NCBI GenBank assembly: GCA_905250025.1
Contig: CAJNOJ010000260.1
Location: forward strand, 78,188-142,187
DNA from: Adineta ricciae
Taxonomy: Eukaryota > Rotifera > Eurotatoria > Adinetida > Adinetidae
DNA length: 64,000 bases
Direction of reading: 5' to 3'
Part shown: piece by piece, positions 5,554-63,107 of the stretch
Layout: each line of letters starts with the position of its first letter
Numbering within the stretch: the first letter of the stretch is position 1
Position numbers and translations under genes: made by a program
Notes under the pieces: model-generated
What the model was told of the DNA's origin: nothing
Database searches by the model: none
Seen by the model: the letters and a program-made list of their open reading frames with translations, nothing else

Positions 5554-7327
5554 TCATGAGGGAATAGAAAGATGAGTTGTAGCTTGCATATCTTAAAAGA
5601 GTTTCTTGTAATGTTGAAGGGTAGGATGCTCTGGTGGTAGCGCTTGCTCTGCCACTTGGAGGACGTATTAACAGCAGGAAAGGGCATTCGAATACTGACC
5701 CATTTTGAAACAAATTATACCGATGATGCCGTAGGATGTGGCGATGTCAGGATGATTAGCAGGAAGCGATTGTTGTTGGATTGCAAGAGCTTGTTCACAT
5801 GATGAAAGTGCTTCCGAATAATTACCCGTGGCACAATGTACACCACCGATATTGCTGTAGGACGTAATTACGTCAGGGTGATTCGGAGGACGTAACTGCT
5901 GCCGAATTTTGAGAGCTTGTTCATAGAATGAAAGTGCATTTGTATAATCATTCATGCTCAGATACAGCGCACCGATGTTGCTCCAGGATGAAGCTACATA
6001 AGGATAACTTGAAGGAAGTGATCGAGGGCAAAATATAAGAGATTTCTTAAAAAGTATCATAGCCTCTTCATATTGTCCTTGCTGTGATTTAATCACGCCC
6101 AGCTGATTATAGATATTTTCTGTGAGAACTTCACATGTGCTTTCAGTGATTCGAGCTTTACAGATTCGCTCAGCAATATCTGTTTGTGCCATCTTGGATA
6201 GTAGAAGACTTAATCGAAAGCATCCTTCTATATTTGGAAAACTTTCTTCTCGGATTTGCTTATTAAGCACGCTCAACTCTTGATCCGTGTCACTAGTCAA
6301 CGACAAATTCACTTCGTACAACTGTTCATTTCCCTCCACTGACTTGATATCAGTGATGCGAAAGATGCTGCGCATGGAAAACAGAACTTCTTTTTCTACT
6401 GGGAACTGACTGATGCGGCCAACTGAAGCAAAAGGTGTTGTCGATTGTTTTGGATCAACTGTCATTACAAAACGAACACTTACTACATCATGGTTCTGTA
6501 CACCAGTTGGAAGGAACATTGAGGATACATCAAGCTTTAAACTGGTAGATAAGAAGTTATTGAACGACATCAATCCATCCTTAGCCGCCACGACTTTGTT
6601 GAAATCTTTCCTTGTCAGACCTTGACCACGATACACTGTGAAGCTATTGGCAGACGAGACATCTCTATATTGTTTTTTGTGCAGCTGATCAATTTGTCGG
6701 TGTAAACCAGCGACAAAAAATCCCATCTATGTGATCACTTCACCATCCATCACTCGCAATGCACGGTTCAATGTGCTAAAGAGGAATCTCTCTGTTGTGT
6801 ACCACCAAATAGGTGTTTTCTCGTCATATCTATCTTCCAATTGCTTCACTTTCATTTGATAAGTTTCATGGTCAACAAATCTATCACAATAATAATTCAC
6901 GAATTCTTTTCTGTGTTTGTCTTCAAACTTGATGGATCAGTATTTCTTTGATGATTTGTGTGTATATAAATGATGGATCGAGTTGATCCAATCTTTTACC
7001 AGATAGTACAAAACTCATCGGAATGGTATTGAATTCATATTGATGAATGATTTTTCCTAACTATTGACTAATAATTTCAATGTCTGTAAAAACACCCTTC
7101 ACCTTGGGTCACTTTTTAGTACAGTGTTCTCCTTGATTCGGATCGTCAGAGAAAATGAAAATGAAGTCGATACTTGCGATGTGTTGGAGTTGCGTCATCG
7201 CATTCTGGTAGTATGAAATAACGGTATGAGTATCTAGCCAGACCACGATTATATCTTGCATTTGTTCAGTGTTTATGTGCTTGTATTCATTTGGCTCGTT
7301 CGAAATCGTTGTTGTTCTGTTTTCTAT
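5554..7327 (-). pseudogene. Broken ART-TPR gene (block B allele)
   Basis: This is the counterpart of the intact gene at 35839-38376. Direct comparison shows at least five lesions. The start codon ATG became ATA near 7325. A 2-bp deletion shifts the frame near 6935. A 132-bp in-frame deletion sits between direct copies of GCGATGT near 7184. A Leu codon became TAG at 6727-6729. A Lys codon became TAA at 5668-5670, removing the C-terminus. Five 42-residue TPR units (630 bp) are also absent. The frame from 6726 to 5668 still encodes the ART core (YRGQ, STS and EKE motifs survive) and a few TPRs, so a truncated 352-residue product is formally possible. The TATA-like sequence at 7433-7446 persists. 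I call it a pseudogene. Confidence 0.85.
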
Positions 7328-8389
7328 TTACCATCAAGTTGAGATTTCGCTATGTTTGTAACGTAAGTATCAAATGATGCTTAACAAAATTGCTTGTCAG
7401 AGCAGTGTCGAAATAGGCTCTAGCTTGAAACTTTATATATAAAAGGACAAAATTTTCTTCCTATATAGACACTTCTTTTTTTTTGCATATGAATCCATAG
7501 AAATGCCAAATGAAAGAGAAATACAGGAATACTCTGATTAGTAAATCGAAAAACACATTTGATGTATATGTTTTCGGGGGGTTCATAGTCGAACAACAAT
7601 CATAAGCTGCCAAAAAAAGCCACTGGTTTAGTTATTGCATTTTTCTTTTGATTATAAAGAAAACATACAACTGAATCATCAACTTCTCGAATTCTAAGAA
7701 CGGAATTGTCCAGTGGTATATTTCACATCATAACTGAACTTTTTCAAGGATCAGTTCGGCCAGGTGAAGACTTCGGATATGTCCATTCAATTGACTATTT
7801 GGCATTTTGTCTTCTTGTTTACGACCATGTGCTTGGATGCAACAAAAATACATAGATGCTCACGCTTTAATCGCGCATGGAGCTCTTTTCAGGTATTCCT
7901 TAGTTGAGCATCTCACACTGGTGTATGATAACTTTTTAATTTGAGTGTGACTAAGATAAAACATCGTTTAGAAAAAGAATTTAGGGAAATTTTAAAGACT
8001 AGTGGAGAACGTTGATGAATGATGCAAATGTTCGTCTGTTTGAGTAATAGCGATCGAAAATAGAAGTGGCAGAAAGGAAAGTTCTCGGAGAATATGCGCT
8101 TGAGTTTGTGTTTGCATTAAGCCACTCAAAACCTGACAAAAGAAGAAGGAAACGGTGAGGAAGAAAAAACCGAATGACTTGATTTTTTCACCCTCAATCT
8201 TTTTGACTTGAGCAAAATTGTCGATTATAGTTGGATGAACCATTCGCAACATTTCTTAACTAAACGGTCTGATAACTACATTGATCCTGAGTACATTTAT
8301 TACGACAAACGTTCACATATTTCGCACCACTCCGAACACAGAACTATTCATCTAAACACATATTTCTAGTCTACACTGTTTTATTTAAA
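7328..8389. other. Upstream flank of ART-TPR relic
   Basis: Collinear with 38377-39204 up to about 8155, after which block B diverges into an insertion of about 3.5 kb. A minus-strand TATA-like stretch is at 7433-7446. No gene is seen; the longest frames are not preserved in the other haplotype. Confidence 0.6.
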
Positions 8390-8929
8390 TTATTCCCTAT
8401 TCGCTTCGTCCCAGAAGTAATTTGCTAACGCGCGACAAACTCGTTTGTAGTTTAAATGTAATTGCTGATATTCTGGTGAACCACGTGGAAAATCCGGATA
8501 GAGCCTTTTTAAATGATCCACACCAAATACCATCAAAGCATAGTTGAGTTCATCATACGAGATTATGTCAAATTCAACATTCTTCCATTGCTTCTTGTAT
8601 CGTTTTATCCACGAATTAACATAGCCTTGCTCAAGTAGACCACAAAATATTTTGATTACTTTCAGATTTCCTGATATACTTTCGACACCGCTTAACCACC
8701 TTTGCATGTTCTCATTCCAAGCAAACAGTGTAATTATTTTCCTGGGGTTATTTTCAACATGATCCCGGCACTCTGCAATTTGAGTAAAAGGGTTAATGAA
8801 CGACATGATATTAGCATTTGGCAAAGCTATTGCTAAAGCTACACCGCTCGTTTCGTACAGTAAGGATGCCAAATAAGTTCCACTTCGATATAAATTATCA
8901 TCATATACAATATGATTGATCGTTTGCAT
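8390..8929 (-). CDS. Third alpha/beta domain unit, probable 3' exon of the 9060-10214 gene
   Basis: A 179-residue frame preceded by a good 3' splice site (pyrimidine stretch then TTGTAG at 8930-8935), so it probably is an exon rather than a complete gene, though its first codon is ATG. The middle carries a third copy of the domain described for 9060-10214: a Cys with an ENNP turn, a strand KIITLFAWN, a strand VIKIFCG and a last strand near FDIISYDELNYAL. This aligns with residues 36-115 of the TPR protein at 23072-27100. The C-terminus (to about 179) is helical and unassigned. I could not find a strong matching 5' splice site in the preceding exon, so the join is unproven. The locus is absent from block C. 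Confidence 0.5.
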   Translation of the reverse strand: MQTINHIVYDDNLYRSGTYLASLLYETSGVALAIALPNANIMSFINPFTQIAECRDHVENNPRKIITLFAWNENMQRWLSGVESISGNLKVIKIFCGLLEQGYVNSWIKRYKKQWKNVEFDIISYDELNYALMVFGVDHLKRLYPDFPRGSPEYQQLHLNYKRVCRALANYFWDEANRE

Positions 8930-9059
8930 CTACAATAAGAAAAACTTCAAAATATGATGATAAGATTTTGGTCATTCGGATTAAAAGGTGAAAATATTTA
9001 TTGGTTTTTTCTTAGTAAGAAAAAGATACTGTTTTTGTAGTACATGAACGAAGAGTACA

Positions 9060-10214
9060 TCATGCAAAACCATCTGCATCGTCGAATTTGTATGTAATTG
9101 CTTGATGATCGCAGACTGACGTGTATGCTCGTTTCACATTGCTATGAACTTGATTTGCTTGTTGTTTCTTGATTTCTGCTGTCAAGCTATTACCAGAGTT
9201 CAGATATTGATCTGCTTCTTTTATGTAGCATCGGTATATCTCATCAGCTAGTTGGAAAATGAGATCTTCACTGTTTTCGAAACGTGTCCGATGATCGACT
9301 CGGTCTTCATCTCCTGTTAAAATATAGACCCCTTCGAATTGTTTTGCTTTTTTATCCATTGTACCAGCGAATGCGTTGCTAACAAAAAGAAACGTAGGTT
9401 GGTCAGGTAATTGCTGAAAATTTATGTTTAATCCATCATCAAAAACACGAATTGCTGCGGGTGTCATCGATATCAAAGCATTCAACATAGCACGCGCATG
9501 CTCATTCAGGTTTTTTGTCACATCAATGAGTATAAATTGAAAGTTAGTAATGCCTGCTTATAGAAAAGAACACGACAAGACTAATGTGACTATCAGTTCA
9601 AAATAAATTTTCATTCGTAGCCCTAAAGATAGAGTATAATACATACTTCTCACCCCTTCTTTGTCGTCTTTCGTAGGTTTCTTCTCATAATCTCGACTCA
9701 CAATGCTTCTGGTTAAGTGTTGATGCACACACTCTATCTTCATATTCTCACGTTGTTGAACATCTTTCAAATCCATGGATATCGCTTCTACTAACTGTTT
9801 TATGTTAGGAGCCATTTTTCGAACTTTCGGATAGTTTTTAGCCCAACGATCGTCACCTGTGCGGTTTGGGCCATATGTGTACACACGAGTAATAGCCGAT
9901 AATGAATGAATATGAGGCAAGACTTTCATCAATAAAGCGTTAGATACAATCAGAAAAATATTCTCATCACCGCTGTATTTCTTTAACCATTGTTTACATC
10001 GTTGAGAATCATCCGTTACGATGGCACGTGTAAAAGATAACTCCAATTGTTTTATACTGGTTTGGATTCGTTGATTTTCGTTGACGTTTTTATCAACCCA
10101 AACAAATAAAGTGTCTTTTTTCATCGATTCATCACTTGGTTTGACCGAATACTTGCTGTCAAGCCTCTTTGTTCTTTTGCTTGCACCGATCGATACTGCT
10201 GTGCGTTTCGACAT
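9060..10214 (-). CDS. Tandem alpha/beta-domain protein, block B only
   Basis: Two exons, 9654-10214 and 9060-9554, with a 99-bp intron (5' GTGAGA, 3' TAAGCAG, phase 0) giving 351 residues. The first unit has hydrophobic strands TLFVWVD (35-41), IFLIVSNALL (86-95) and ITRVYTYGPN (108-117), and ends with KVRKMAPNIKQL. The second repeats the pattern with FILIDVT, TFLFVSNAFAG and GVYILTGDED. The same layout forms the N-termini of the ART-TPR, TPR and TRAF-like proteins in this window. No catalytic residues are recognised. It may continue into 8390-8929. It lies inside a 3.5-kb segment missing from the other haplotype. Function is unknown; a sensor or adaptor role is inferred only from the partner domains of its relatives. 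Confidence 0.55.
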
Positions 10215-10320
10215 TGATAAAGAAAGCTTTTATTCAGTTTGAAGGTGGTTTTTTAAAAATCTATATGATAGAAGATTTGAAATGAAACTATGAATTAATA
10301 TGAAGTTAGCGCAATGCATC

Positions 10321-10454
10321 TAAATGAGTTCAAACTCGTGAACAATGCACTACCGAAGGCTAGGGTCTGCAAGATGATATAAATAACAGCTATGAAAACA
10401 TGTTCATGCAATCCTTACCTTTGGTAATCCGGCTCAATAGTTTGAACTCATTTA
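10321..10454. mobile_element. Short inverted-repeat element (MITE-like), 134 bp
   Basis: The ends are perfect 16-bp inverted repeats, TAAATGAGTTCAAACT at 10321-10336 and its complement at 10439-10454. Weaker inverted similarity continues inward (TACCGAAGGCTAGG against TACCAAAGGTAAGG). No coding capacity. It is a non-autonomous DNA transposon or fold-back sequence. No clear target duplication is seen. Confidence 0.55.
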
Positions 10455-10916
10455 AACCGGTTTTCAGGGCTTTAAATCGCAATCAGAACTCTTCGTTTGA
10501 AAATGGACACGCAAGAAAACTGTTTTTATGTTTATAAGAGAAAATAAAGTAGCGGGAAAAGTCCGACAAACACATAAGAGTAAATATTCAAACGCTACTT
10601 ACGACTTTTCCGGAGACAAATATTCATGTTGATTTTTTCCGATCATCTTCCGATTATGCTGAACAAATATCGTCGTCAACCTTTTTTATTTGACTTAAGT
10701 AAGTAGGAAAACTGGAAAAAATTTGTTTAAAAAAAGTAACGAATAGAAAGCACTGGAAGTTTCTAATGCTGAGATCATTATTGATGAAGAAAGCATTTAC
10801 TACTATGCGCATTTGAGAAGCTGTACGATCACAACTGATATATTTCATTGAATAGAAGAATACATAAATGGACTTGGATCACGGCAAAAGTCGAAAGTTC
10901 TAGCGATAAATAGGAA

Positions 10917-11183
10917 CCCAGTCAGACAAAAATTTGGACAAACGCATTTAAACACACAAAAGAGAACCACGATTGTGAGCTATTAATGTTCAGTTAAAAC
11001 ACGTTCGAACACGCGTTTCCTGGGGTTTTTTTCAACTTTCTCAGCGTGTAAATATCGGAATTTTCCTTTTTCCAACGTAGAAGCGGTCTTTTAATATAGT
11101 ATTTTAAAATAAGGCGTTTTCACGCTAGAGAAAGGAAAATTCTGATGTTTAAACGCGTTTTTCCAAATTTTTGTCTGGCTGGG
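10917..11183. mobile_element. MITE-like element with 36-bp terminal inverted repeats, 267 bp
   Basis: The left end starts CCCAGTCAGACAAAAATTTG. The right end, read in reverse complement, starts CCCAGCCAGACAAAAATTTG, and similarity extends through the TTTAAAC at about position 36, with three mismatches counted by eye. The interior is non-coding. No convincing target-site duplication was found, so the superfamily is undetermined. Absent from block C. Confidence 0.6.
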
Positions 11184-11549
11184 AAGAGAACAGTGTCTGA
11201 TATAATCGACAATGACTATGTAAGGACTTAAGCCTGTATCATTGTTCACAGCTCTGTTTGCATAGTCGGTGAAAGAAATATAACTCAAAAGAGATGCTAA
11301 GAGAACTCCAACGCTATGTTGCCGTATATGTTATGACAAACTTCGACGGAAGACGTATATGCGTTGATGGAACTACCCTTTATTTATCTATTTCTCTTGA
11401 ATAGCATAATTCCTGTGTTATATACTCGTCCACAGAAGGAAACGATAGAAAACATTGCTTCATAGTACATCATTATACGGTGAAATGATAAGATTTGTGG
11501 GGATAATTCATTAGAAAAGAAAAGCCAAAAGGGCAGCTAGCAACCGTAT

Positions 11550-11728
11550 GGTGAGGGTGAGGGTGAGGGACGTAGGATACCTTCAGGTAGGATTCGACAT
11601 TTTCTTGAGCGGATTCGTTTCAGCGTAGGTTCTAATCAAACCAACACTGGTTCCAAGTACAACTTGATGAGGTCTATCGGTTCCAATTATAAAATATTTT
11701 CATCCAACCCACACCCACACTCACCCTC
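11550..11728. repeat. Segment flanked by inverted telomere-like arms
   Basis: The left arm is GGTGAGGGTGAGGGTGAGGG (11550-11569). The right arm (11706-11728) is CCC-rich and reads GAGGGTGAGTGTGGGTGTGG on the minus strand. The 136 bp between them match 39205-39350 of block C in the opposite orientation. The arms are absent or eroded in C. This looks like a flipped or transposed segment whose breakpoints coincide with telomere-like repeats. Confidence 0.6.
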
Positions 11729-11739
11729 AAGATTGTGGG

Positions 11740-12005
11740 GGTCGACCAGTGACGATAAGTACTTTGGAGATTATCGGTTCGGCAAACGAGAAGGACGTAG
11801 GACGTACGTCTGGTCTAACGGAAACAAATATGTCGAAGCTTGGCTAAATAATGAACGTATAGAGATGGGTTTGCTCTATTTTGTTGATGGCGATCGCTAT
11901 GAAGGGAGATTTCTGAAAGATGAACGATATGAAAACAGCACTTAATATTATAACGGTAAAATCAGGCGAACAGGTGTATGGCAGTACGGAAACCTTGTCG
12001 CTTAA
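11740..12005 (+). pseudogene. MORN-repeat gene relic
   Basis: The frame encodes MORN-type motifs: YFGDYRFGKREGRRTY, then MGLLYFVDGDRYEGRF. A TAA at 11943-11945 interrupts it, after which the same frame resumes with YYNGKIRRTGVWQYGN to a second stop at 12003-12005. MORN repeats usually bind membranes or act as scaffolds. The 5' part is cut off by the telomere-flanked segment. The block C copy has the same internal TAA, so the loss predates the split of the two versions. Confidence 0.6.
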
Positions 12006-12276: not shown

Positions 12277-14428
12277 CTATTCGTTTAGGCTTTTAATGAT
12301 AATTTCGGCATTTGGTTCCAGCTCTTTCAGCAATTTCCATGCGCCATTTTTTGGCATACCCATATCATTCCAATCGTCCAAAAACGCATCCACTGCTTGT
12401 TTATGAGGATCAAGTGGCTGCAGTACTGCAAACTCGGCACGAATAATCAGTTTCCCATAGTATAGAGTTTTCTTTCGCATGTCCTTACGATTACCAGCGT
12501 TGCTGACATACATGGTTTTATACCGATCACGTAGCATTTTATACAAATGCACGGATAACCAATGAAACTGATGTAGTTGATACGGTGGTTTACTAGCATC
12601 AACTAACCATCGTTCAGCCTGCATTATCCACAGTGAGCATGACTGAGGTGTGCTGAAGCCAAGCATCGATTGAAGGTTAGCCACTAGTTGATCATAACGT
12701 CGACGTAGAGGAGCAATTTTTTCATTTGATAGTGGCAGTAAACTGATATCTGCAGTTAATGGAACGTCTCGTTCAAAGGTCGACTCGGGTGAGCAGCGTT
12801 CACAACGACAGGTAAATCCACGCGCCGACAAAATTCGCTGACGTTCGTCTCGAGGCAGATATCCATCGGATAGATATGATATGCATATCTCGTCTCCTGA
12901 TAAACGAAAAAGAGTAGGATAATGAGTAGTACTAAAAATTACTCTTTCAAATCACCTTCAGTGACATCTCGTACAGTCTCAACTTTTTGCTTAGTTGTGC
13001 CGGAAATTTTGCTGATAGTTGCGCTGGGACAACAACTATGATTGAACAAGGATGTTCTTACACCAAGTTTTAGTAAGTATTTTCGATTCAGCATGGTTGA
13101 ATCTACTGCTTCTCCTCGAAACACATTCGTCGCCACCTTTTCGTGAGCTAGTTGCCACATTTCATGTGAATAAAGAGAAGGATAAGGTGATGTTTCTCGG
13201 GCAAACCGCCCTGAGGGTTGTTGTGGTGACAATAAATCAAAATATTCTTTATTTTCAAGCACTTGTAATACCAGTGGCTCAGCAGCGTGAAGTAAATATC
13301 CTTCGTTATGCGCTCTAAAACCAGTGACCGGAGAGGAAGAAGTCACAAGTGGTGTATCGTGCATGATACATGTCATCGCTGGTATATTGCAGCGTGCTCG
13401 ATATCCTCTTCCTTTATTTTCAATTGATACAACTTCCAGATAATTTTGCCACGCTGGTGTTTCGTCTGAAATTATGATACGAACATAGAAAGATAGTACA
13501 TGTTACTTTCTTGAGTACCTGTTTGTGTTTGCGTTGAAGGTTTCAAAATATCTGCTTTCGCTACCATTACCGTTGTCCTACAAAGGTAAAGCTCATCCTC
13601 GTCAAAACCTTTTCCACCAGGACGAAAAGATAACGCTTACGGCTCGGTATTTTCGATTGTTATTCCTTGTATTTGTCGATAGAAGATGTTATTTTCTTCT
13701 CTGGATTCGTTCGTAGCGTGCTGACGGTACTTAGGATCCGATGAGTAATAACCTGTTTCTGGTTCGTCCGAATCATTCAGATCGTTGAGTTCATTAAAGT
13801 AACAATAGTGTAGTTCTTCAGGAAAATATCTCTTCAATAATTTACGAAATATTTTGATAACAAATTCTGAGCACATTGGATGCCAAACTTGTGCCCAAGC
13901 CTTTTTGAAATGATGGGCATAGAGCGGCAAAGTAATATTTTCGATCGCAATCGCAATAGGTGGTTCAATGGAAGCAGCCTCTGAATGCGATACGTCGCTC
14001 ATTCCAATTAATCTTTGTAGTTCATCTTCTGATAAAGAATAATTCATCTGCTCTGCCAATCCTCGCACTTTTTTCAAGCTCTTGTCGTAGACAATCGATT
14101 TTTCTTCTTCAGTCAAAACATAACACGCCTTCCCGTAAAGTTTCTTCGCTAAATTTGTACGCCAAGTAGCAGAAAACGAATCATCCGTATCGCCTTTGAT
14201 GAAATTGAACTGATCGGTTAAATGAATTAATTTCATATCGGTAACAACTGGATGATGTTCTGTAACTATTGGCAGAAATTCACCAGTAGTATCGTTCCTA
14301 TTCACCACCATACGCATGCTGTCCGTTTGATGCTCCAAAAAATACGCATAAACCGCTTGCAAAAATAATTTCCATTTGTTCTCGTCTGTTATTCGATTAA
14401 ATACGAATATACCAGTATCGTAGGTCAT
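12277..14428 (-). CDS. SET-domain (SMYD-like) protein methyltransferase
   Basis: Four exons: 13641-14428, 13519-13577, 12956-13465 and 12277-12896. The introns of 63, 53 and 59 bp have GTAAGC/TAG, GTACTC/CAG and GTGATT/CAG borders, and all phases fit, giving 658 residues. The SET core starts with GRGYRARCNIPA (about 302-313). NHSC lies at 424-427, the strand ICISY at 456-460 and the post-SET cysteines (CRCERC) at 482, 484 and 487. A C-terminal helical part follows, as in SMYD proteins. The usual MYND zinc finger is not seen; instead a 262-residue N-terminal region of unknown fold precedes the SET domain. It probably transfers methyl from SAM to protein lysines. ATG 14428 is chosen because it is the first start shared by both versions that fits the conserved frame. 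The last two exons are the most secure part. Confidence 0.75.
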
Positions 14429-14803
14429 AATCGATTTGTGTTGGAAGTTGGATGGATAATGTAGTGATTTGCAAAATGCTGCAGAAAAAGAAATTTGCTG
14501 GCCATGATATAGGACACTACTGGGGATTTTTCGAGAGAGCATAGAGAACGAGAATGACAAGTTGTGCACACTTTGACGCAAGATAAAGAAAAGAAACACA
14601 AAACTCATTGATTTTTTTTTCCAGCCAGGTAATGTTGAAAGCGAATAACACCTACGATGTCTTTTGTCCAAATAGAAACCATCTGTGAAAATTTAGAAAA
14701 AGGTCGATAAAAGAACCAACATCGCCATATATTTTTTATTATTACAGAAGACAACAAACTACATGTATATTTACACAAAAATTTACAACGAATTGAGATA
14801 TGT

Positions 14804-17104: not shown

Positions 17105-17509
17105 TACAGTCGACTTATTACGTCTGAACAGAGAATGACAAAATATATACGTGTCCAATTCATTAGTCACGCGTTCCTATTGGTGCCGATAATATGATGT
17201 AGGAGTGTGTCCAGAAGAAAAAGAATAAACCGGCATAAAAGTGCATTTGAATAACCTTTTGAACTATTTGATCATTGTCTAGCTTAAAATAAGGATATAG
17301 GGCAGACAGCCAAAAGAAAGATATCCAATTACCATGGCGTATTCTCATGCTTTTGACCACTGCTCTATTTAGTTTTGTGTTCATATCTTGAACATTCTTT
17401 CGAAAGCCTCATCACTGTAAGATATGAAAGCATGTCAGTTTATTTCGAGATTAGTTGAAAATAAAGTATAGTTTCTAGATTAGATAGTTTTCAAAAATAA
17501 AACAAAGAG
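17105..17509. other. Intergenic region
   Basis: The 5' flank of the asparagine synthetase gene and 3' flank of the Cys-rich gene. A 73-residue minus-strand frame here is disrupted in block C and is not counted as a gene. Confidence 0.6.
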
Positions 17510-19260: not shown

Positions 19261-19261
19261 A

Positions 19262-19301: not shown

Positions 19302-19326
19302 GGCCGACATTATTGTTTGAGTTTGA

Positions 19327-26000: not shown

Positions 26001-27100
26001 TTCTCGTCGTCATTATCAATGTGTTCTAACATAGCCTCAAAGGCTTCCTGTCCTCTGTCTGTTTGAATCAGTTCTGCGATTAATCGACTTCGGCTCTTTT
26101 CCTCGGAAAGCTTCACATCTGGTGTTTCACCCGGAACCAAATTGACTTGCCATAGTCGAACATTGTTTGCAAATCGTTTGTATTTTTCGATGCGGAATGG
26201 CGAAAACAAAGAAAATAGAATTCCAACATGACTCTCGTTTTGGTTATGTTGCTGAACGGTGTCAAGTGATGTCGGGCGATCTGCACTTGTTAAAAGGAAA
26301 GTTTGAAATACTATCCAACCGTTTTTTGTTGCTTTCAATTGTTCGAACTTTTCCTGCGATAAAATATGTCTGAAATACGCCGTCAAGGCTGATGAATGTT
26401 GATGATCTTGGTTACATTGTTTTGAATAAATATGGGAAATGTTGATGTCTAAATCGTGGATGAAACAGGCAAGTTTTATAAGCATATCGATGTCCATCGA
26501 ATATAGAGCTTTGCGGAGGAATGAAGTGTGAAGCTGATTAGAGATAAACCACGAAATCGGTGATTGGGAAATATATTTTTCATTGTTCATTTGAGATTCG
26601 TACTGATTCAGATATTCTTCCATCTGCTTTCGATCATCATCAATTAGTAACAACATATTTTTGAATAATTGGTAGAATCTTCTGAATTCGTCGTCACCAT
26701 TTGCGGTGAAAAAATGCACTGATACTAGATTTGCGACCCATTCTTTGTTATTTGTACTCAGCGTCTCATAAAGTGACGAAGTATCGGTGCAAAGAATCTT
26801 GACTTTCGAATATTGTTCTCGCACATCGCTGTAGTTTCCTTTTTCCTTTGATAATATATAAACTTCGTGCACTTCTTCAAAGTCACGAGTCTCTGGAAGG
26901 ATTTTTTCGGCCATTGTGTCTGACGGACTGAGTACAAGTCGATCCATTGGATTTTTCTGAATGAATTCAATACAAGAACCGATATCTGTGAAGGTTTTGA
27001 CAGTTTGAGCTGTGTTTCGCAATTTGTCACGTGCATTTTCGTCGACAATTTCATCAAGTCCAATGAGAACAAAGCCACGTTCCATCGCGCTAACCTTCAA
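23072..27100 (-). CDS. Giant TPR protein with alpha/beta domain and degenerate ART (1342 aa)
   Basis: One uninterrupted exon. Residues 9-115 form the alpha/beta domain shared with neighbours: GFVLIGLDE, TFTDIGSCIEFI, DRLVLSPSD, EVYILSKEKG and KVKILCTD. Residues about 183-320 match the ART region of the 845-aa protein at 35839-38376, but the catalytic triad has decayed. The Arg segment is AYFRHILS (R244), STS became LTS (270-272), and the ExE before ILFS became HVG (291-293). It is therefore probably a pseudo-ART unable to transfer ADP-ribose. From about 366 to the end lie roughly 23 TPRs of 42 residues of kinesin-light-chain type (NNLGxxYxxMGxYxxAxxYYxxAL then NHPD), forming a superhelical protein-binding scaffold. 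Cytosolic. The copy at 51139-55167 has identical length. Confidence 0.85.
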   Translation of the reverse strand: MKVSAMERGFVLIGLDEIVDENARDKLRNTAQTVKTFTDIGSCIEFIQKNPMDRLVLSPSDTMAEKILPETRDFEEVHEVYILSKEKGNYSDVREQYSKVKILCTDTSSLYETLSTNNKEWVANLVSVHFFTANGDDEFRRFYQLFKNMLLLIDDDRKQMEEYLNQYESQMNNEKYISQSPISWFISNQLHTSFLRKALYSMDIDMLIKLACFIHDLDINISHIYSKQCNQDHQHSSALTAYFRHILSQEKFEQLKATKNGWIVFQTFLLTSADRPTSLDTVQQHNQNESHVGILFSLFSPFRIEKYKRFANNVRLWQVNLVPGETPDVKLSEEKSRSRLIAELIQTDRGQEAFEAMLEHIDNDDEKATLYQQLGSIRNDEQNYTEAIEFYRKAIGILSKNPLDTNLADVYHKIGLIYRDIRAYLEAISFHMNELNILQQLAPLNYESIFICYECISYNAEMLESYSEAIEFQLKLLNLAQQHDSSPHPVCTRCLFQLGRLYTRLSNESEALFYYETSYEQNQGILFEERTNKVTVCNAISKIFEKNNNLTKALSYYEKAREHLEEIRPVNRIDYLRAYKNIARTFEKLNQPTNALPYYEKILHLDRTARPSNKLDIASDYASIGRVLYQAKEYQKALVNLHVATRLYEQVNLSDETDLSHVFNCIGSLYQETGDYANAITFFEKLVPIQEQILPETHPDLDLTYCRLSFMYTVTNQLSKSLFYCEKSLELQNKKFPDNHPDLVSSYQCVAKVLMDVKEYDRSLEYYQKAIEILEVTQSGDRDDLKTMLDNVVKIYTAINDDRNVLLYQEKIHQYLLKTCSPDDHSLINSYESLAYLYEKLNKNEKAKLIREQLIENYERNPSLAQCDLPNLYLKVAAHFEKERNYTKTFGYYQKVLDSLQNDPRPNLSYIVTLFFQLGRFYENLEDFSQALQCYHEALDTQLKIVPVDNFMLIIAYDNIARIYDSTDRPLLSIPSYEKSVDLAERTSVNNVTLMERYQKIVTALTKVGYYSKALTYEEKNVELHRKLYTEKPLQLTSCYTDIAGLYYQMGDYTKALSFYKDVITITKNHLGFDHTELATSYINIANVHVAIGKYPQARLNYQKASDIYKKILPMNHPCLATLYANMGLLNSKLGKYSEAYSNYQQAMEIRESSLSPSHVDLANSYTSFGAVLTNMRQYKEAILYHEKALKILQSIVPANHPYLACTYNNLGVTYKNMGEHAKALSYYKKDLEISKESLPPNHPDLTVSYNNLGGIYLAMKNYPQALQYYQQALDIRQKILHPKHSDLAQSFNNLGSVYMAMNNRSKAAKFYKYALDIAQRVLPEHHPDLFAYREHVKRARK

Positions 27101-34714: not shown

Positions 34715-34715
34715 N
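34715..34715. other. Single-N contig join
   Basis: Left of it the sequence matches 62632 and should continue as 62633 onward. Right of it the sequence matches the inside of the gene at 2087-4912. The two halves of the window are thus joined inside two different genes on opposite strands, which argues for an assembly join. Confidence 0.88.
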
Positions 34716-34717
34716 AA

Positions 34718-35838: not shown

Positions 35839-38376
35839 TCATGAGGGAATAGAACGATGAGTTGTAGCTTGCATATCTTCAAAGAGTTTCTTGTAATGTT
35901 GAAGGTTAGGATGTTCTGGTGGTAGCGCTTGCTCTGCCACTTGGAGGGCGTATTTGCAGCAGGAAATGGCATTCGAATATTGATCCATTTTGAAATAAAT
36001 TATACCGATGATGCTGTAGGATGTGGCGATGTCAGGATGATTAGCGGGAAGCGATTGTTGTTGGATTGTAAGAGCTTGTTCACATAATGAAAGCGCTTTA
36101 GGATAGTCACCCATACTGTCATACACTGCGCCAATGTTGCTATAGGATGTAGCCACATCAGGATGATTGGAAGGAAGCGACTTCAGTTGAATTTCGAGCG
36201 CTTGTTGATAAGATGAAAGTGCTTCCGGATAATTACTCGTGTCACAATGTACACCGCCGATATTGCTGTACGATGTAATTACATCACGGTGATTCGGAGG
36301 ACGTAACTGCTGCCGAATTTTGAGAGCATCTTGATGGGATAAAAGTGCATCCAAATAATTACCCATGTTCGAATATACCAAACCGATGTTATTGTGACAT
36401 GAAGCCACATCAGAATGATTGGAACCAAGAGATTGCTGCCAAATGTTGAGAGCTTGGCCAAAGGAGGCGAGTGCCTTTTCATAATCACCCGCTTTGACGT
36501 ATGCATTGCCAATATTGTTGTGCGATGAAGCGACATCAGGATGATTCGCAGGAAGTGACTGTTGTTGAATTTTAAGAGCTTGCTTAAAGAATGAAAGTGC
36601 ATTTGTATAATTATCCACTTTGAGATTCACAATGCCGATGTTGTTGTAGGATCCAGCCATTTCGGGATGATTCGCGGGAAATGATTCCCGTTGAATTTTC
36701 AGAGCTTGCTCATAGAATGGGAGTGCTTTGGAATAATCACCCATACTGGCATACACTGCGCCAATGTTGTTATAGGATGTAGCCACATCAGGATGATTGG
36801 AAGGAAGCGACTTCAGTTGAATTTTGAGAGCTTGCTCAAAGAATGAAAGTGCATTTGTATAATCATTCATGCTCAGATACAGCGCACCGATGTTGCTGCA
36901 GGATGAAGCTACATAAGGATGACTTGAAGGAAGTGATCGAAGGCAAAACATAAGAGATATCTTAAAGAGTACCATAGCCTCTTCATATTGTCCTTGCTGT
37001 GATTTAATCACACCCAGTTGATTATAGATATTTTCTGTGGGATCTTCACATGTGCTTTCATTGATTCGAGCTTTACAGATTCGCTCAGCAATATCTGTTT
37101 GTGCCATCTTGGACAGTATAAGACTTAATCGAAACCATCCTTCTATATTTGGAAAACTTTCTTCCCGGATTTGCTTAGTAAGCACGCTCAATTCTTCATC
37201 CGTGTCACTAGTCAACGACAAATTCACTTCGTACAACTGTTCATTTCCCTCCATTAACTTGACATCATTGATGCGAAAGATGCTGTGCATCGAAAACAGA
37301 ATTTCTTTTTCTAGTGGAAACTGACTGATGCGACCAACCGAAGCAAAAGGTGTTGTCGATTGTTTTGGATCAACTGTCATTACAAAACGAACACTTACTA
37401 CATCATGGTTCTCTACACCAGTTGGAAGGAACATTGAGGATACATCACGCTTTAAACTGGTAGATAAGAAGTTATTGAACGACATCAATCCACCCTTAGC
37501 CGCCACGATTTTGTTGAAATCTTTCCTTGTCAGACCTTGACCACGATACACTGTAAAGCTATTGGCAGACAAGACATCTCTATATTGTTCTTTGTGTAGT
37601 TGATCAATTTGTCGGTGTAGATCAGCGACAAAAAATCCCATCAATGTGATCACTTCACCATCCATCACTCGCAATGCACGGTTCAATGTGCCAAAGACGA
37701 ATCTCTCTGTTGTGTACCACCAAATAGGCGTTTTCTTATCATATCTATCTTCCAATTGTTTCACTTTCATTCGATAGGTTTCATTGTCAACGAATCTATC
37801 ACAATAATAATTCACGAATTCTTTTCTGTGCTTGTCTTCAAACTTGATGGTTAACAGTACTTCTTTGATGATTTGTGTGTACATAAATGATGGATCGAGT
37901 TGATCCAATCTTTTACCAGATGGTACAAAACTCATCGGAATGGCATTGAAGTCATATTGACGAATAATTCTTCCTAACTGTTGACTAATAATTTCAATGT
38001 CTGTAAAAACACCCTTCACCTTGGACCACTTTTTAGTGCAGTGTTCTCCTAGATCCGGATCGTCAGAGAATATGAAAATGAAGTCGATATTTGCGATGTC
38101 ATGTATGCATGGCACAACATGTTGTTCGACCGCTGCTGAAATGATGAGACACACTTTTGAGTCAATGCTGTCGATGATGAACTCGACGCACTGATCATTA
38201 TCAGTGAACGTATGAATGTCATTGGCGATGTGTTGGAGTTGCGTCATCGCATTCTGATAGTATGGAATAACTGTATGAGTATCTAGCCAGACCACGATTA
38301 CATCTTGCATTTGTTCAGTGTTTATGCGCTTGTATTCATTTGGCTCGTTTGAAATCGTTGTTGTTTTGTTGTCCAT
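35839..38376 (-). CDS. ADP-ribosyltransferase with alpha/beta domain and TPR array (845 aa), intact allele
   Basis: A single exon. Residues 26-140 form the shared alpha/beta domain: VIVVWLD, TFTDNDQCVEFI, KVCLIIS, DFIFIFSDD and KVKGVFTD. A helical linker (about 165-265) leads to an Arg-Ser-Glu class mono-ADP-ribosyltransferase domain. It has the Arg in VYRGQG (R278), the STS motif in FLSTSLK (305-307) and the ExE loop in LEKEILFS (E356, E358), all catalytic positions present. Such enzymes move ADP-ribose from NAD to protein side chains, arginine when the loop is ExE. From about 450 nine 42-residue kinesin-light-chain-type TPRs (NNIGxVYxxMGDY, NHPDVA) follow as substrate- or partner-binding scaffold. 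There is no signal peptide, so it is cytosolic. Substrate is unknown. The block B allele (5554-7327) is a pseudogene lacking five TPRs. Confidence 0.88.
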   Translation of the reverse strand: MDNKTTTISNEPNEYKRINTEQMQDVIVVWLDTHTVIPYYQNAMTQLQHIANDIHTFTDNDQCVEFIIDSIDSKVCLIISAAVEQHVVPCIHDIANIDFIFIFSDDPDLGEHCTKKWSKVKGVFTDIEIISQQLGRIIRQYDFNAIPMSFVPSGKRLDQLDPSFMYTQIIKEVLLTIKFEDKHRKEFVNYYCDRFVDNETYRMKVKQLEDRYDKKTPIWWYTTERFVFGTLNRALRVMDGEVITLMGFFVADLHRQIDQLHKEQYRDVLSANSFTVYRGQGLTRKDFNKIVAAKGGLMSFNNFLSTSLKRDVSSMFLPTGVENHDVVSVRFVMTVDPKQSTTPFASVGRISQFPLEKEILFSMHSIFRINDVKLMEGNEQLYEVNLSLTSDTDEELSVLTKQIREESFPNIEGWFRLSLILSKMAQTDIAERICKARINESTCEDPTENIYNQLGVIKSQQGQYEEAMVLFKISLMFCLRSLPSSHPYVASSCSNIGALYLSMNDYTNALSFFEQALKIQLKSLPSNHPDVATSYNNIGAVYASMGDYSKALPFYEQALKIQRESFPANHPEMAGSYNNIGIVNLKVDNYTNALSFFKQALKIQQQSLPANHPDVASSHNNIGNAYVKAGDYEKALASFGQALNIWQQSLGSNHSDVASCHNNIGLVYSNMGNYLDALLSHQDALKIRQQLRPPNHRDVITSYSNIGGVHCDTSNYPEALSSYQQALEIQLKSLPSNHPDVATSYSNIGAVYDSMGDYPKALSLCEQALTIQQQSLPANHPDIATSYSIIGIIYFKMDQYSNAISCCKYALQVAEQALPPEHPNLQHYKKLFEDMQATTHRSIPS

Positions 38377-42414: not shown

Positions 42415-42790
42415 AATCGATTTGTGTTGGAAGTTGGATGGGTAATGTAGTGATTTGCAAAATGCTGTAGACAAAGAAATTTATTGGCTAGATATAGGGC
42501 ACTACTGGGGATTTTTCGAGAGAGCATAGAGAACGAGAATGACAAGTTGTGCACACTTTGACGTAAGATAAAGAAAAGAAACACAAAACTCGTTGATTTT
42601 TTTTCCAGTCAGGTAATGTTGAAAGCGAATAACACGTACGACGTCTTTTGTCCAAATAGAAACCATCTGTGAAAATTTAGAAAAAGGTCGATAAAAGAAC
42701 CAACATCGCCATATATTTCTTATTATTACACAAGACAACAAACTACATCCATATTTACACAAAAATTTACAACGAATTGAGATATTATGT

Positions 42791-45090: not shown

Positions 45091-45478
45091 TACATTCGAC
45101 TGATCACGTCTGAACAGAGAATGACGAAATATATAGCTGTCCAATTCATTAGTCACGCATTCCTATTAGCACCGATAATATGTAGGAGTGTGCCTAGAAG
45201 AAAAAGAATAAACCGGCATAAAAGTGCGTTTGAATAACCTTTTGAACTATCTAGTCATTGTCTAGCATAAAATGAGGATATGGGTCAGACAGCCAATTAC
45301 CATGACGTATTCTCATGCTTTTGACGACTGCTCTGTTTAGTTTCGTGTTCATACCTTGAACATTCTTTCGAAAGCCTCATCACTCTGAGATATAAAAACA
45401 TGTCAATTTATTTCGAGATTAGTTGAAAATAATGTATAGTTTCCAGATTAGATAGTTTTCAAGAATAAAAAAAATGAG
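45091..45478. other. Intergenic region
   Basis: Equivalent of 17105-17509 with small deletions. No gene is seen. Confidence 0.55.
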
Positions 45479-47370: not shown

Positions 47371-47395
47371 GGCCGACATTATTGTTTGTGTTTGA

Positions 47396-54100: not shown

Positions 54101-55167
54101 GCCTCAAAGGCTTCCTGTCCTCTGTCTGTTTGAATAAGTTCTGCGATTAACCGACTTCGGTTCTTTTCCTCAGAAAGCTTCGCATCTAGTGCTTCGACCG
54201 AATCCAAATTGACTTGCCATAGTCGAGCACTGTTTTCAAATCGTTTGTATTTTTCTATGCGGAGTGACGGGAACAAAGAAAATAGAATTCCAACATAACT
54301 CTTGTTTTGGTTATGTTGCTGACCGAAGTCAAGTGATGTCGGGCAATCTGGATTTGTTAAAAGGAAAGTTTGAAATACTATCCAACCGTTTTTTGCTGCT
54401 TTCAATTGTTCGAACTTTTTCTGCGATAAAATGTGTCTGAAACAGGCCGTCGAGGCTGATGAATGTTGATGATCTTGGTTACATTGTTTTGAATAAATAT
54501 GGGAAATGTTGCTGTCCAGATCGTGAATGAAACAGGCAAGTTTTATAAGCATATCGATGTCCATCGAGTATAGAGCTTTGCGGAGGAATGAAGTATGAAG
54601 CTGATGAGAGATAAAGCGCGAAATCGGCGATTGGGAAAGATATTTTTCATTGTTCATTTGAGCTTCGTATTGATTCAGATATTCTTCCATCTGTTTTCGA
54701 TCATCATCAATTAATAACAACATATTTTTGAATAATTGGTAGAATTTTCTGAATTCATCGTCACTATTTGCGGTGAAAAAATGCACTGATACTAGATTTG
54801 CGACCCATTCTTTGTCATTTGTACTCAGCGTCTCATAAAGTGACGAAGTATCGGTGCAAATAATCTTGACTCTCGAATATTGTTCTCGCACATCGCTGTA
54901 GTTTCCTTTTTCCTTCGATAATATATAAACTTCGTGTACCTGTTGAAGGTCACGAGTCTCAGGAAGGATTGTTTCAGCCATTGTGTCTGACGGGCTGGGT
55001 ACAATTCGATCCATTGGATTTTTCTGAATGAATTCAATATAAGAACCGACATCTGTGAAGGTTTTGGCAGTTTGAACTGTGTTTCGAAATTTGTCACGTG
55101 CATTTTCGTCGACAATTTCATCAAGTCCAACGAGAACAAAACCACGTTCCATCGCGCTCACCTTCAA
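51139..55167 (-). CDS. Giant TPR protein with alpha/beta domain and degenerate ART, second copy
   Basis: 1342 residues, same length as 23072-27100. The alpha/beta head is kept (GFVLVGLDE, DVGSYIEFI, KVKIICTD). The ART remnant is further degraded: the Arg segment is ACFRHILS, STS is LTN and the ExE position reads YVG before ILFS. Substitutions are dense in the head and ART remnant, whereas the last eight or so TPRs are almost identical to block B. This suggests the TPR end is under the strongest constraint, or that gene conversion acts there. Confidence 0.85.
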   Translation of the reverse strand: MKVSAMERGFVLVGLDEIVDENARDKFRNTVQTAKTFTDVGSYIEFIQKNPMDRIVPSPSDTMAETILPETRDLQQVHEVYILSKEKGNYSDVREQYSRVKIICTDTSSLYETLSTNDKEWVANLVSVHFFTANSDDEFRKFYQLFKNMLLLIDDDRKQMEEYLNQYEAQMNNEKYLSQSPISRFISHQLHTSFLRKALYSMDIDMLIKLACFIHDLDSNISHIYSKQCNQDHQHSSASTACFRHILSQKKFEQLKAAKNGWIVFQTFLLTNPDCPTSLDFGQQHNQNKSYVGILFSLFPSLRIEKYKRFENSARLWQVNLDSVEALDAKLSEEKNRSRLIAELIQTDRGQEAFEAMLEHINNDDEKATLYQQLGSIRNDEQNYTEAIEFYRKAISILSKSSIDTNLADVYHKIGLIYRDIHAYIEAFSSHMNELNILQQLTSLNHESIFICYECISYNAEMLENYSEAIAFQLRLLHLAQQYDSSPHSVCNKCLFQLGRLYMRLNNESEALFYYETSYEQNQGISFEERTNKVTACNAISKIFEKNNNLTQALVYYEKTREHLEEIRPVNRIDYVCAYKNIARTFDKLNQPTNALPYYEKILHLDRTAHPSNKLDIASDYASVGRILYQTKEYKKALVNLHIATRLYEQVNPSDETDLSHVYNCIGSLYQETGDYANAITFFEKLVPIQEQILSQTHPDLDLTYCRLGFIYTVTNQLSKSLLYCEKSLELQKRKLPDNHPDLVSSYQCVAKVLMDVKEYDRSLKYYQKAIEILEVTQSGDPDDLKAMLDIVIKIYSVINDDRNVLLYQEKIHRYLLKTCSPDDHNLINSYETLAYLYEKLNEYEKAELIREQLIENYERNPSLAQCDLPNLYLKVAAHFEKERNYTKTFGYYQKALDSLQNDPRPNLSHIVTLFFQLGRFYENLKDFSQALQCYHEALDTQMTIVPVDNLILIIAYDNIARIYDSTDRPLLLIPMYEKSIDLAERIPLDNVTLMEYYQKIVTALTTVGYYSKALTYGEKNVELHRKLYSEKPLQLTSCYTDIAGLYYQMGDYTKALSFYKDVITIIKNHLDSNHAELATSYINIANVHVAIGKYPQARLNYQKASDIYKKILPMDHPYLATLYANMGLLNSKLGKYSEAYSNYQQAMKIREISFPLSHVDLANSYTSFGTALTNMRQYKAAILYHEKALKILQSIVPANHPYLASTYNNLGVTYKNMGEHAKALSYYEKDLEISKESLPPNHPDLTVSYNNLGGIYLAMKNYPQALQYYQQALDIRQKILHPKHSDLAQSFNNLGSVYMAMNNRSKAAKFYKHALDIAQRVLPEHHPDLFAYREHVKHARK

Positions 55168-57387: not shown

Positions 57388-57500
57388 TGTTAACAATTTG
57401 ATGGTGAATGCGATGTGCAAGTGAATATAGTAGACGAATTGTCTGATGTTTGATATTGAATGCAGAGCAAACGTATTGACTTATATATACAACCGGTTGA

Positions 57501-57548
<48 letters not shown>

Positions 57549-60628: not shown

Positions 60629-62290
60629 TTATGTTGTGTTCTTCATTGTGGCGCATAACAGATCGTCCAGCAATTTCGATACTGTTTTCTCAATTTCATT
60701 TTCTTCGTCATCGCAGGATTCATTTACACCGAGCATTAACGATGCGACTAAAATGTGAAAACAAACGAAAATCATTAGCGATGTATCTGTCACTCACATG
60801 GCATTTCAGCACAGAAATTCACTTGAAGTTTTATATAAATTGTGTCATCCTGCACATGATGATGTCGATATTTGCCTAATGTATCTAGCGAAAAGCAACT
60901 GACAACGCCGTGCGGTATGTTCATGGTATTCAATGGACGTTGGCATGAACTCGATGTTTTGTCAGGTAAAAAAGACGTTGACACATTATATTTATCTGAG
61001 ATATGACCAAGCAAAGTAAATGTGACTTGATATTGAAATGGCCACCGAAGATGTTCATCATAGTCACCTGGAATGAGAACAAGAAATGCCGATGTATGTG
61101 TGTGTCGTGCTTGGCCATTGCCATTTAGATACAGCTTCAAACATGCTCTGTATCCGCCAGGAAAAAGGTAGAATGGACTGGAATATATCGCTTTCTTTGG
61201 ATTTTCTAATAATTATATGAAGTTATATACGAATTAAAAACTAGATTGGATCCGTTTCACTAGACGTACTTTTCAGAGTATCGACATCAGAAATTCTCCA
61301 AATACCTGTACCATCCAACAGTGTTGTCGTTGAGTACTTTGAATTGAATTCCCAAGCATGATTACTGCAGTCCGAAGTCTGAACAAAACATGTCCATAGA
61401 TCCTGATGTTTAACTTTGAAATGTTCCTAAACATATATAAAGTGAATCACTTCGTGGAAAAACATCGATTCATACTTGATAATAAACTCCCAGCGACCCT
61501 GACCAATCACAGTTTGAACAAACTGCCTGTTCATCTTTCATAGTCGTTTGCCGACTGTTGTCACCAACAGAAATTCGATTTGGCGTGATAGTTATCGAAC
61601 AAACGGCACATCTATAATTGATGAAAGGTCAACAATAAGAAAATAATTCACAAGGACTTACTTCGTTCGAACTTTCACGCATATAGAACACTTTCGATGT
61701 CCACATTCAAGTCGATACAGCTGTTCAAACACTAATTGACAAGAAGTACATTTGAAGTCTGAGTGAACTTCATCAATATTCTTCACAGGAAATCCTCTAA
61801 GATCAGCTAGAGGAAATTGTTTCGATGTCTTACAATGGCGAAGTAACATTGAGGCACTTTTAGCACCAATACGGTCTTCGATGGATGAAGACAAAGCATA
61901 AACGATTTCTCTGCATAATGAATCAGATATTGCTACTACAGCATTATCGCAGATGATTTTACATAAGCGTTGAGGTAGATCTCGTATAGAATGAAATTTG
62001 ATTCGATGATCATGTAGAACAGTAAGATAGAGTTGCTTTCCAAATGGATCATCCAAATCGTCGAAATAAACATCAATATACTGTATTTGGGGGAAGTGAT
62101 AGACTGGATCTTCGATTAATTTTTGCAAAGAATCTAACGGAATTATTAGATGAAATAAATCTGTTGCCATTATATTGTTTGTAATACATTCAATCAATTC
62201 AGACAGTTTCACAGATACATTGTTGAATAGCTGTGCTACTGCATCTGATATTGGGCTTGTCCACACCAAGAGAATTTTCGAGGATTCCAT
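60629..62290 (-). CDS. TRAF-like RING/MATH protein with N-terminal alpha/beta domain, second copy (482 aa)
   Basis: Exons 61662-62290, 61476-61611, 61270-61426, 60798-61205 and 60629-60747. The first four match block B in length; the last is 12 bp longer because the stop moved (LLCATMKNTT against LLCVGT). All RING ligands are kept (FKCTSCQLVFEQLYRLECGH, RKCSICV) and the MATH core reads YSSPFYLFPGGYRACLKLYL. Most changes fall in the alpha/beta head and in the polar tail. Confidence 0.82.
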
Positions 62291-62448
62291 GTATATTAGA
62301 GGTATTAGATATTATATTAATCTACAAATAAAAAAAGAGATATTTATTCGTAGAAATATTGACAACGATCAAAATAACACTTTAAAAATATGCTTCGATT
62401 AAATCGATAGTTATTATCTAGTCTACAGGCTCACAGTCACTATTTCAT
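62291..62448. other. Short intergenic spacer
   Basis: 158 bp between two minus-strand genes that both encode the alpha/beta domain. No terminator or other feature can be identified. Confidence 0.45.
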
Positions 62449-63107
62449 CTACAGTCTTTTCGCGAGTGCACATAAACTAAGTGCACGATCATAGTTCCTT
62501 CGAATATTAACTTCATCATTATCATTTTCAGCATGATCATCCCCAATTTCTTCAGAAAACAGAGCAACATCAATGACTAGTTTGATCAACAAACGTGTGT
62601 CATCACTAAATATACCATCAATCTTCGTATTCGATCTCAATGTTCGTTGTAAACGAGTTAGTTCATGTGAACAACAACGAATCAACATCGATCGAATTGA
62701 AGGAATCGTTCTACAACGACATGCCACTTCTTCAGATGTTGTTGTACTTGTCTCAATGATTAAACAAGCAACTGTTAATAATGAATATGTATTCAACCAA
62801 CACCATAGTTGTTCTTCGATAGATAAAAGAACTAAAGTAATATCACGAGGAACTAAATATTCGATAAGTGCATTTTTTAACGAAGATTCTTTTCTCCCCA
62901 ACCAAATCACAATCACATCTCCTCTACGAACTAATACAAACATGTTTATGACATACTTTGTTGTATATTGGAAACAGTCTACTTACCGTTGCCATAGACA
63001 CGAGGCGATAATTGTTGAATCTGTTCATGATGAACATCGGTTTGGGGCGATGTTTTCACATCTTTAGACAAGTGAACAGTCGACAAAGCTTCGACTAAAG
63101 ATGCCAT
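62449..63107 (-). CDS. Small protein made mostly of the alpha/beta domain (200 aa)
   Basis: Two exons, 62987-63107 and 62449-62930, with a 56-bp intron (GTAAGT/TTAG, phase 1). Exon 1 encodes a polar leader (MASLVEALSTVHLSKDVKTS). Exon 2 starts VRRGDVIVIWLG, followed by LVLLSIEEQLWCWL, VACLIIETST and KIDGIFSDDTRLL. This is the same order of strands as in the heads of the ART-TPR, TPR and TRAF-like proteins; the IFSDD and VFTD/CTD turns correspond. No enzyme or zinc motif is attached. It could act as a free interaction partner of the TRAF-like protein next door (158 bp away, same strand), but that is inference. The block B copy is cut at 34714. Confidence 0.65.

What the first reader, a model, noticed from the sequence alone, without database searches (positions are those of the whole stretch)
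5554..63107. One unnamed alpha/beta domain heads five different proteins in this interval
Seen: the order of hydrophobic strands and turns is shared by the ART-TPR protein (VIVVWLD, KVCLIIS, FIFIFSDD, KVKGVFTD) and the giant TPR protein (VLIGLDE, RLVLSPSD, VYILSKEKG, KVKILCTD). It is also shared by the TRAF-like protein (ILLVW, LFHLIIPLDSL, YIDVYFDD, KFHSIQDL), the 200-aa protein (VIVIWLG, VACLIIETST, IDGIFSDD) and the B-only gene (TLFVWVD, IFLIVSNALL, VYTYGPN). Length is about 110-130 residues with a Cys-x-x-hydrophobic turn before strand 2. Inference: a Rossmann-like fold near receiver or TIR domains, acting as a sensor or homotypic adaptor module that has been shuffled onto NAD-using, scaffold and ubiquitin-ligase outputs. 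The domain-by-output pattern resembles innate-immune adaptor systems. I know no named domain that covers it.
Basis: partly seen in the sequence, partly recalled or inferred. Interest (0 to 1): 0.8.

Follow-up and report, generated by a model that had tools for sequence, protein, structure and literature searches.

The report
One receiver-like domain heads five proteins
A small, unnamed protein module at the front of five gene types in this stretch is one real domain family: mostly the first part of a very large family of repeat proteins that look able to attach ADP-ribose to other proteins, and sometimes found without that enzyme, which suggests a shared signalling part, though its job is untested.

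Summary
A profile built only from 32 non-window copies ranks the ART-TPR, B-only and both giant-TPR heads far above every other window frame of 80 aa or more (138, 104, 73, 65 bits; reversed frames at most 3.3). The 200-aa head joins clearly after one relative is added (28.3 bits, shuffles at most 7.2). The TRAF-like head joins only through one intermediate, L095. The own genome has 150 or more matches (scoring cap). No Pfam or NCBIfam family shown covers the head. The predicted fold (pLDDT 79) is a five-stranded receiver/flavodoxin-like sandwich mostly lacking the receiver's phosphorylation residues.
'Shuffled onto five outputs' is too strong. An intact, partial or decayed ADP-ribosyltransferase (ART) follows the head in 77 of 80 sampled loci. 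The giant TPR protein and a B-only paralogue keep ARTs that lost catalytic residues. Only the RING-MATH and 200-aa genes form a separate branch.
Best model: a conserved regulatory or self-association module of ART-TPR proteins, with less constrained TPRs as the likely recognition part. The immune role is inferred.

The parts
37939..38325 (-). Head domain of the ART-TPR protein (A), residues 18-146
   Evidence: 142 bits to a profile of 32 non-window heads; AlphaFold2 model pLDDT 79.3
37165..37920 (-). ADP-ribosyltransferase of A (PF03496 type) with R-S-E-x-E residues
   Evidence: Pfam PF03496 29.8 bits, cut-off 23.4; residues
35842..37086 (-). TPR array of A
   Evidence: PF13424/PF13374 repeats
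5554..7330 (-). Pseudogene copy of the ART-TPR gene: about 125 bases (some 42 residues) of the head missing, stops in the head, ART split over three frames; described only
26723..27097 (-). Head of giant TPR protein, copy 1 (B1)
   Evidence: 77 bits; 150 genome matches incl. the A head at 5.6e-5
26087..26704 (-).
   Evidence: 141.5 bits to a local ART profile; none of the four catalytic residues in place
54790..55164 (-). Head of giant TPR protein, copy 2 (B2)
   Evidence: 69 bits
54151..54774 (-). Decayed ADP-ribosyltransferase region of B2
   Evidence: 134.4 bits; none of the four catalytic residues in place
9744..10136 (-). Head of the B-only gene (E), exon 1
   Evidence: 104 bits; 150 genome matches
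9060..9557 (-). Exon 2 of the E gene (E2): possible second head-like domain, sequence link not significant; that it is an exon of E is inferred
   Evidence: order head-E2-E3 recurs at C435, C499, C251; 4-7 bits only
8390..8929 (-). Exon 3 of the E gene (E3): divergent head-like domain; that it is an exon of E is inferred
   Evidence: 20.6 bits, shuffles at most 6.4
62545..62934 (-). Head of the 200-aa protein (D)
   Evidence: 10.0 bits directly, 28.3 bits after adding its relative L091; D-family profile to A head 21.2 bits
34531..34714 (-). Truncated copy of D, cut at a single N (34715)
   Evidence: 78.7 bits to D-family profile; junction
61919..62290 (-). Head of the TRAF-like protein, copy 2 (C2)
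   Evidence: linked through L095: 42% over 57 aa
34001..34372 (-). Head of the TRAF-like protein, copy 1 (C1)
   Evidence: linked through L095: 37% over 99 aa
32872..33294 (-). MATH domain exon of the TRAF-like gene, copy 1
   Evidence: PF21355 110.9 bits
60790..61212 (-). MATH domain exon of the TRAF-like gene, copy 2
   Evidence: PF21355 105.1 bits

Best explanation
The head is one homologous (beta-alpha)5 domain of about 115 residues with a receiver/flavodoxin-like fold but, in most copies, without the receiver phosphorylation site. Its main home is the N-terminus of a hugely expanded family: head, ADP-ribosyltransferase with R-S-E-x-E residues, TPR array. Shown: homology, fold prediction, architecture, ART residues, and constraint on head and ART. 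Inferred: the TPR array binds a changing partner, the ART modifies a target protein, and the head is the constant regulatory or self-association module that holds the enzyme off or brings copies together. The ART-less carriers (200-aa protein, head-RING-MATH protein, E gene) would then be partners that plug into the same contacts.
For: Homology. Fold: pLDDT 79.3, pTM 0.75, strand-helix order five times; PDB matches at TMq about 0.49-0.59 to receivers, B12-binding domains and a KaiA pseudo-receiver. Architecture: an ART or part of one follows the head in the same frame in 72 of 80 loci and in the next frame in 5 more. Catalytic residues R-S-E-E in 57 of 64 near-complete ARTs, Arg in 64 of 64. 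Head and ART distances correlate, r 0.95, 0 of 2000 permutations as high. dN/dS of the head is 0.08-0.43 in 10 of 10 close paralogue pairs that I picked by hand from the 80 loci; the part after the ART is less constrained than the head in 7 of 8. Conserved residues lie at strand ends and in helices 2-4: W-L-D, F-T-D, S, C, P..H, W, K.
Against: No binding, enzyme or expression data. In B1/B2 the order of constraint is reversed (head 0.59, TPR 0.26), and C1/C2 heads (0.81) and D against L089 (1.19, from 5 changes) show little constraint. TPR arrays align poorly, which inflates their dN/dS. I found no gene neighbourhood or paper that ties this family to immunity. Homotypic contact is inferred only from ART-less carriers.
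Confidence: 0.5

Rival explanations
1. The head is a small-molecule (nucleotide-like) sensor: the pocket at the carboxyl ends of the strands binds a ligand and switches the ART on.
For: Conserved polar residues at strand ends (D after strand 1, D after strand 2, S-G-x-x-G after strand 3, C/S after strand 4); B12-binding domains and AMP-binding enzymes among structural neighbours.
Against: The Gly-rich loop is lost in window heads A, B and E (sequences); no PDB match at E 1e-3 or better.
Confidence: 0.25
2. The head is only a structural cap needed for folding or stability of the ART, with no signalling role; ART-less carriers are relics.
For: Co-inheritance with the ART; weak constraint on window B and C heads (0.59, 0.81); decay of the ART in B and in the C251 gene.
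Against: The 200-aa and RING-MATH carriers persist with open frames; the D head diverged from L091 at dN/dS 0.19, though dS there is saturated (2.6).
Confidence: 0.2
3. The five heads only share a generic alpha/beta pattern and are not homologous.
For: C, and D before relatives are added, score near shuffles directly; the C model is unconfident (pLDDT 50.6).
Against: A, B, E far above shuffles and reversed frames; D and C linked through relatives.
Confidence: 0.05

Closest known systems
Response-regulator receiver (CheY-like) and pseudo-receiver domains
   Same: Five-stranded alternating fold, about 115 residues, acidic residue after strand 1 (Asp in 29 of 36), N-terminal position; structural neighbours include NarL, DesR, TadZ and KaiA
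   Different: Place of the phospho-Asp is Gly in 22 and Asp in 6 of 36, no closing Lys after strand 5, no receiver among the Pfam rows shown; joined to ART-TPR in what looks like an animal genome (inference)
R-S-E-x-E ADP-ribosyltransferases (PF03496 / PF01129)
   Same: The enzyme domain behind most sampled heads: in A it matches PF03496; R, S, E, E in 57 of 64
   Different: Most PF01129 matches of this genome seem to belong to other ARTs: 8 of 8 loci looked at have no head in the fetched flanks; but at C237 a head and a PF01129 match share one 527-aa frame
TRAF-type RING-MATH ubiquitin ligases
   Same: C gene has a sub-threshold half-RING match and a clear MATH exon
   Different: An N-terminal head of this family; not part of TRAFs as I recall them
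Expanded TPR gene families of bdelloid rotifers
   Same: PMC3846280 (passages seen) names TPR proteins among expanded bdelloid families and suggests host defence among the roles of such families
   Different: The passages seen name neither ART nor this head

Membership tests
Receiver (CheY-like, PF00072) | (beta-alpha)5 fold | tested here: met
   AlphaFold2 model of A head
Receiver (CheY-like, PF00072) | Phospho-acceptor Asp after strand 3 | tested here: not met
   The column after the conserved Ser is G 22, D 6, E 3, A 2 of 36; B1/B2 are among the few with Asp; register against CheY recalled, by eye
Receiver (CheY-like, PF00072) | Lys after strand 5 | tested here: not met
   Typical heads read K-V-K-G-V-F-T-D, Thr-Asp at the strand end (by eye); receiver motif recalled
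Receiver (CheY-like, PF00072) | Pfam profile match | tested here: not met
   Not among the 25 of 30 families shown for 20 heads at E up to 1; the five not shown rank below the last shown (E 0.12)
TIR | TIR profile or structural match | tested here: inconclusive
   No TIR among Pfam rows shown or the 50 PDB matches shown of 1399; no TIR was compared directly
PF03496 ADP-ribosyltransferase (domain after the head) | Profile match | tested here: met
   29.8 bits for A against a cut-off of 23.4; other loci tested only with a local profile built from A and its relatives
PF03496 ADP-ribosyltransferase (domain after the head) | R-S-E-x-E residues | tested here: met
   57 of 64 near-complete ARTs; not met in B1, B2 and C251
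PF03496 ADP-ribosyltransferase (domain after the head) | Transferase activity | not testable with these tools
   needs an enzyme assay
TRAF-type ligase (C gene) | MATH domain | tested here: met
   110.9 and 105.1 bits
TRAF-type ligase (C gene) | RING domain | tested here: inconclusive
   16.2 bits, under the cut-off of 21, in a frame that holds only its first part; the next frame gave no match
Homotypic immune adaptor module | Head-head binding | not testable with these tools
   no interaction data

The most novel reading that the evidence does not exclude
A lineage has built its own family of 150 or more intracellular receptors from an unusual set of parts: a receiver-like homotypic module, an ADP-ribosyltransferase effector and a variable TPR sensor. 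The same module links them to a RING-MATH ubiquitin ligase and to head-only adaptors, an NLR-like network with ADP-ribosylation as its output.
Probability: 0.25. Interest if true: 0.85.

Novelty: new variant of a known kind. Interest (0 to 1): 0.52.

Why it matters
At least 150 places in one 130 Mb genome (at the scoring cap; some are fragments) encode a domain that no Pfam or NCBIfam row shown names, and 57 of the 80 loci sampled carry behind it a near-complete ADP-ribosyltransferase with all four catalytic residues. If the module controls or assembles these enzymes, it would explain how one genome keeps so many of them safely and would give an entry point to a possible defence or stress system. 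It also corrects the reading of the giant TPR protein, which is a decayed ART-TPR protein and not a new scaffold.

Tried and rejected
Rejected: five independent fusions (A, B, E trace to one architecture); a phospho-receiver (residues absent in most); a chance hydrophobic pattern; the head as partner of every ART (PF01129 loci L001-L008 carry none in their fetched flanks; one PF01129 match, at C237, does share a frame with a head). Led nowhere: PDB sequence search (best E 0.061, a designed protein); PADLOC (best E 0.004, each family in 1 of 20 members); phages (no match); bacterial/archaeal contigs (65 pattern matches, no relative) and viral contigs (no pattern match), each with one single query, so distant relatives could be missed; viral structures (0 at E 0.001 or better); profile-profile comparison of small alignments (probabilities 0-19%), too shallow to use; the C head model (pLDDT 50.6) is inconclusive and was not used for a fold search. 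Paper searches listed no title or abstract start about this domain or a rotifer ART-TPR family; the library holds open-licence papers only, and I read passages of four papers (PMC12220480, PMC10809525, PMC3846280, PMC2861651). The first two report ADP-ribosylation terms in Adineta vaga expression data and connect them with PARPs, so I do not claim those signals for this family.
Full report
Setting. The window is the last 64 kb of contig C260 in a 130.46 Mb, 1033-contig genome. The window holds a direct tandem duplication, copy 1 at 4431-34714 and copy 2 at 34716-62632, 88-95% identical over the aligned pieces, meeting at a single N at 34715.

The observation. I named the heads A (ART-TPR), B1/B2 (giant TPR, two copies), C1/C2 (TRAF-like, two copies), D (200 aa) and E (B-only). 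Single-sequence searches of the own genome count 151 matches for A and 150 each for E and B, all at the scoring cap and including fragments; B's list includes the A head at 5.6e-5. C has 3 matches (itself, its copy, C4) and D has 9, fragments included. A profile from 32 non-redundant heads without any window head gives A 142, E 104, B1 77, B2 69, L095 (a C relative) 30.5, L093/L094 (D relatives) 24, the third E exon 20.6, L091 (a closer D relative) 19.6, D 10.0 bits; C was not listed. Shuffles reach at most 13.2 bits over all sequences. Ranking window frames of 80 aa or more puts A, E, B1, B2, E exon 3 and D first, in that order; 109 reversed frames reach 3.3 bits at most.

The weak links. D becomes clear once L091 joins the profile (28.3 bits, shuffles at most 7.2), and a D-family profile finds the A head at 21.2 bits. 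C stays near its shuffles in the extended profiles (C2 12.8 and C1 11.6 against 9.9 and 11.5). It is tied in only because C1 matches L095 over 99 residues at 37% and L095 matches the head profile over nearly the same stretch. The E gene's second exon is not significant; I include it only because its place between head and exon 3 recurs at C435, C499 and C251. That the three E stretches are exons of one gene is inferred from that order.

Fold. A model of the A head, with three other window heads as alignment rows, has mean pLDDT 79.3, pTM 0.75 and five strand-helix pairs; the other four models of that run scored 72.3, 69.8, 53.5 and 52.4. Foldseek against the PDB gives no match at E 0.001 or better; among the 50 shown are a designed protein, B12-binding domains, type II dehydroquinases, receivers and a KaiA pseudo-receiver, TMq about 0.49-0.59. 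A C model from its two window copies is unconfident (pLDDT 50.6).

Receiver test. Among 36 heads, W-L-D follows strand 1 (W 33, D 29), F-T-D strand 2, Ser strand 3 (35), with Gly 22 and Asp 6 in the next place; C/S follows strand 4; Lys is 35 of 36 at the start of strand 5. The phospho-acceptor and closing lysine of receivers (recalled) are absent in most. No Pfam, NCBIfam or PADLOC row shown covers the heads above a cut-off; the lowest Pfam E-value was 0.001 for one of 20 members (OKR_DC_1_N, which I recall as CheY-like).

What the head is attached to. Of 80 sampled head loci (79 distinct places, since L054 and L078 are one gene), 72 show an ADP-ribosyltransferase or part of one in the same frame and 5 more in the next frame (L055, L056, L058, L059, L080). 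The three without are L013, the window E gene and its C435 paralogue. The sample is the best matches of three queries, so rare fusions are under-represented. The ART of A matches PF03496. The residues R-S-E-E are complete in 57 of 64 loci with a near-complete ART; 16 of 80 loci, B1, B2 and the duplicate L078 among them, were left out of that count. The giant TPR protein carries an ART region at 141 and 134 bits that covers only part of the profile and keeps none of the four residues; an E paralogue at C251 carries one at 87.6 bits after its head and keeps only the Arg. A midpoint-rooted tree of 46 sequences places B with ART-bearing L088 (support 0.89), E in a clade with ART-bearing copies (0.95), and C plus D together (0.83; C with L095 0.96). 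So there are two branches: ART-TPR and its decayed offshoots, and a small C/D branch with RING-MATH (MATH 110.9 bits; RING sub-threshold) or no other domain found. That C/D is the outer branch depends on the rooting.

Constraint. Head and ART distances correlate at r 0.95 over 2016 pairs, 0 of 2000 permutations as high. In 10 close paralogue pairs picked by hand, head dN/dS is 0.08-0.43; ART is 0.08-0.51 in 9; the part after the ART is 0.41-0.75 in 8 and exceeds the head in 7 of 8. Against this, in B1/B2 the head is 0.59 and the TPR part 0.26, in C1/C2 the head is 0.81, and D against L089 gives 1.19 from five changes; these rest on few changes. TPR arrays align poorly, so their values are upper estimates.

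Reading. A conserved head and enzyme with a faster-changing repeat array is the pattern of a receptor with a constant signalling half and a variable recognition half; NLR proteins are the analogy I recall. I therefore take the head as the constant regulatory or self-association module (0.5), a ligand sensor as the main rival (0.25) and a structural cap next (0.2). Immunity is an inference; PMC3846280 (passages) suggests host defence among the roles of expanded bdelloid families, naming TPR proteins among them, with no mention of this domain in the passages seen.

Novelty. New domain family on a known fold in an unusual architecture. The paper searches named in Tried and rejected listed none on it. 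Relatives outside this genome were sought only in bacterial, archaeal, viral and phage collections, one query each, none found; other animals could not be searched.

Noticed in passing
4431-34714 and 34716-62632: Direct tandem duplication of about 28-30 kb, 88-95% identical over aligned pieces, joined at a single N (34715). A second N (158) follows sequence that by eye resembles the same gene end, so further copies upstream are likely.
   Followed up: partly
8168-11921: Stretch with the E gene present in copy 1 and without counterpart in copy 2.
   Followed up: partly
5554-7330: Copy-1 ART-TPR gene is a pseudogene: about 42 residues of the head missing, stops, ART in three frames.
   Followed up: partly
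whole genome: 150 scored PF01129 ART matches, many in 250-350 aa frames; no head in the fetched flanks of the 8 loci checked, but at C237:82350-83381 a head and a PF01129 match share one frame.
   Followed up: partly
G000:C4:156838-159195: Relatives of C and D lie about 1.8 kb apart in the same order and strand as in the window.
   Followed up: no
13637-17176 and 41623-45162: Frames that, from memory, resemble asparagine synthetase, spread over several frames in both copies; not searched.
   Followed up: no
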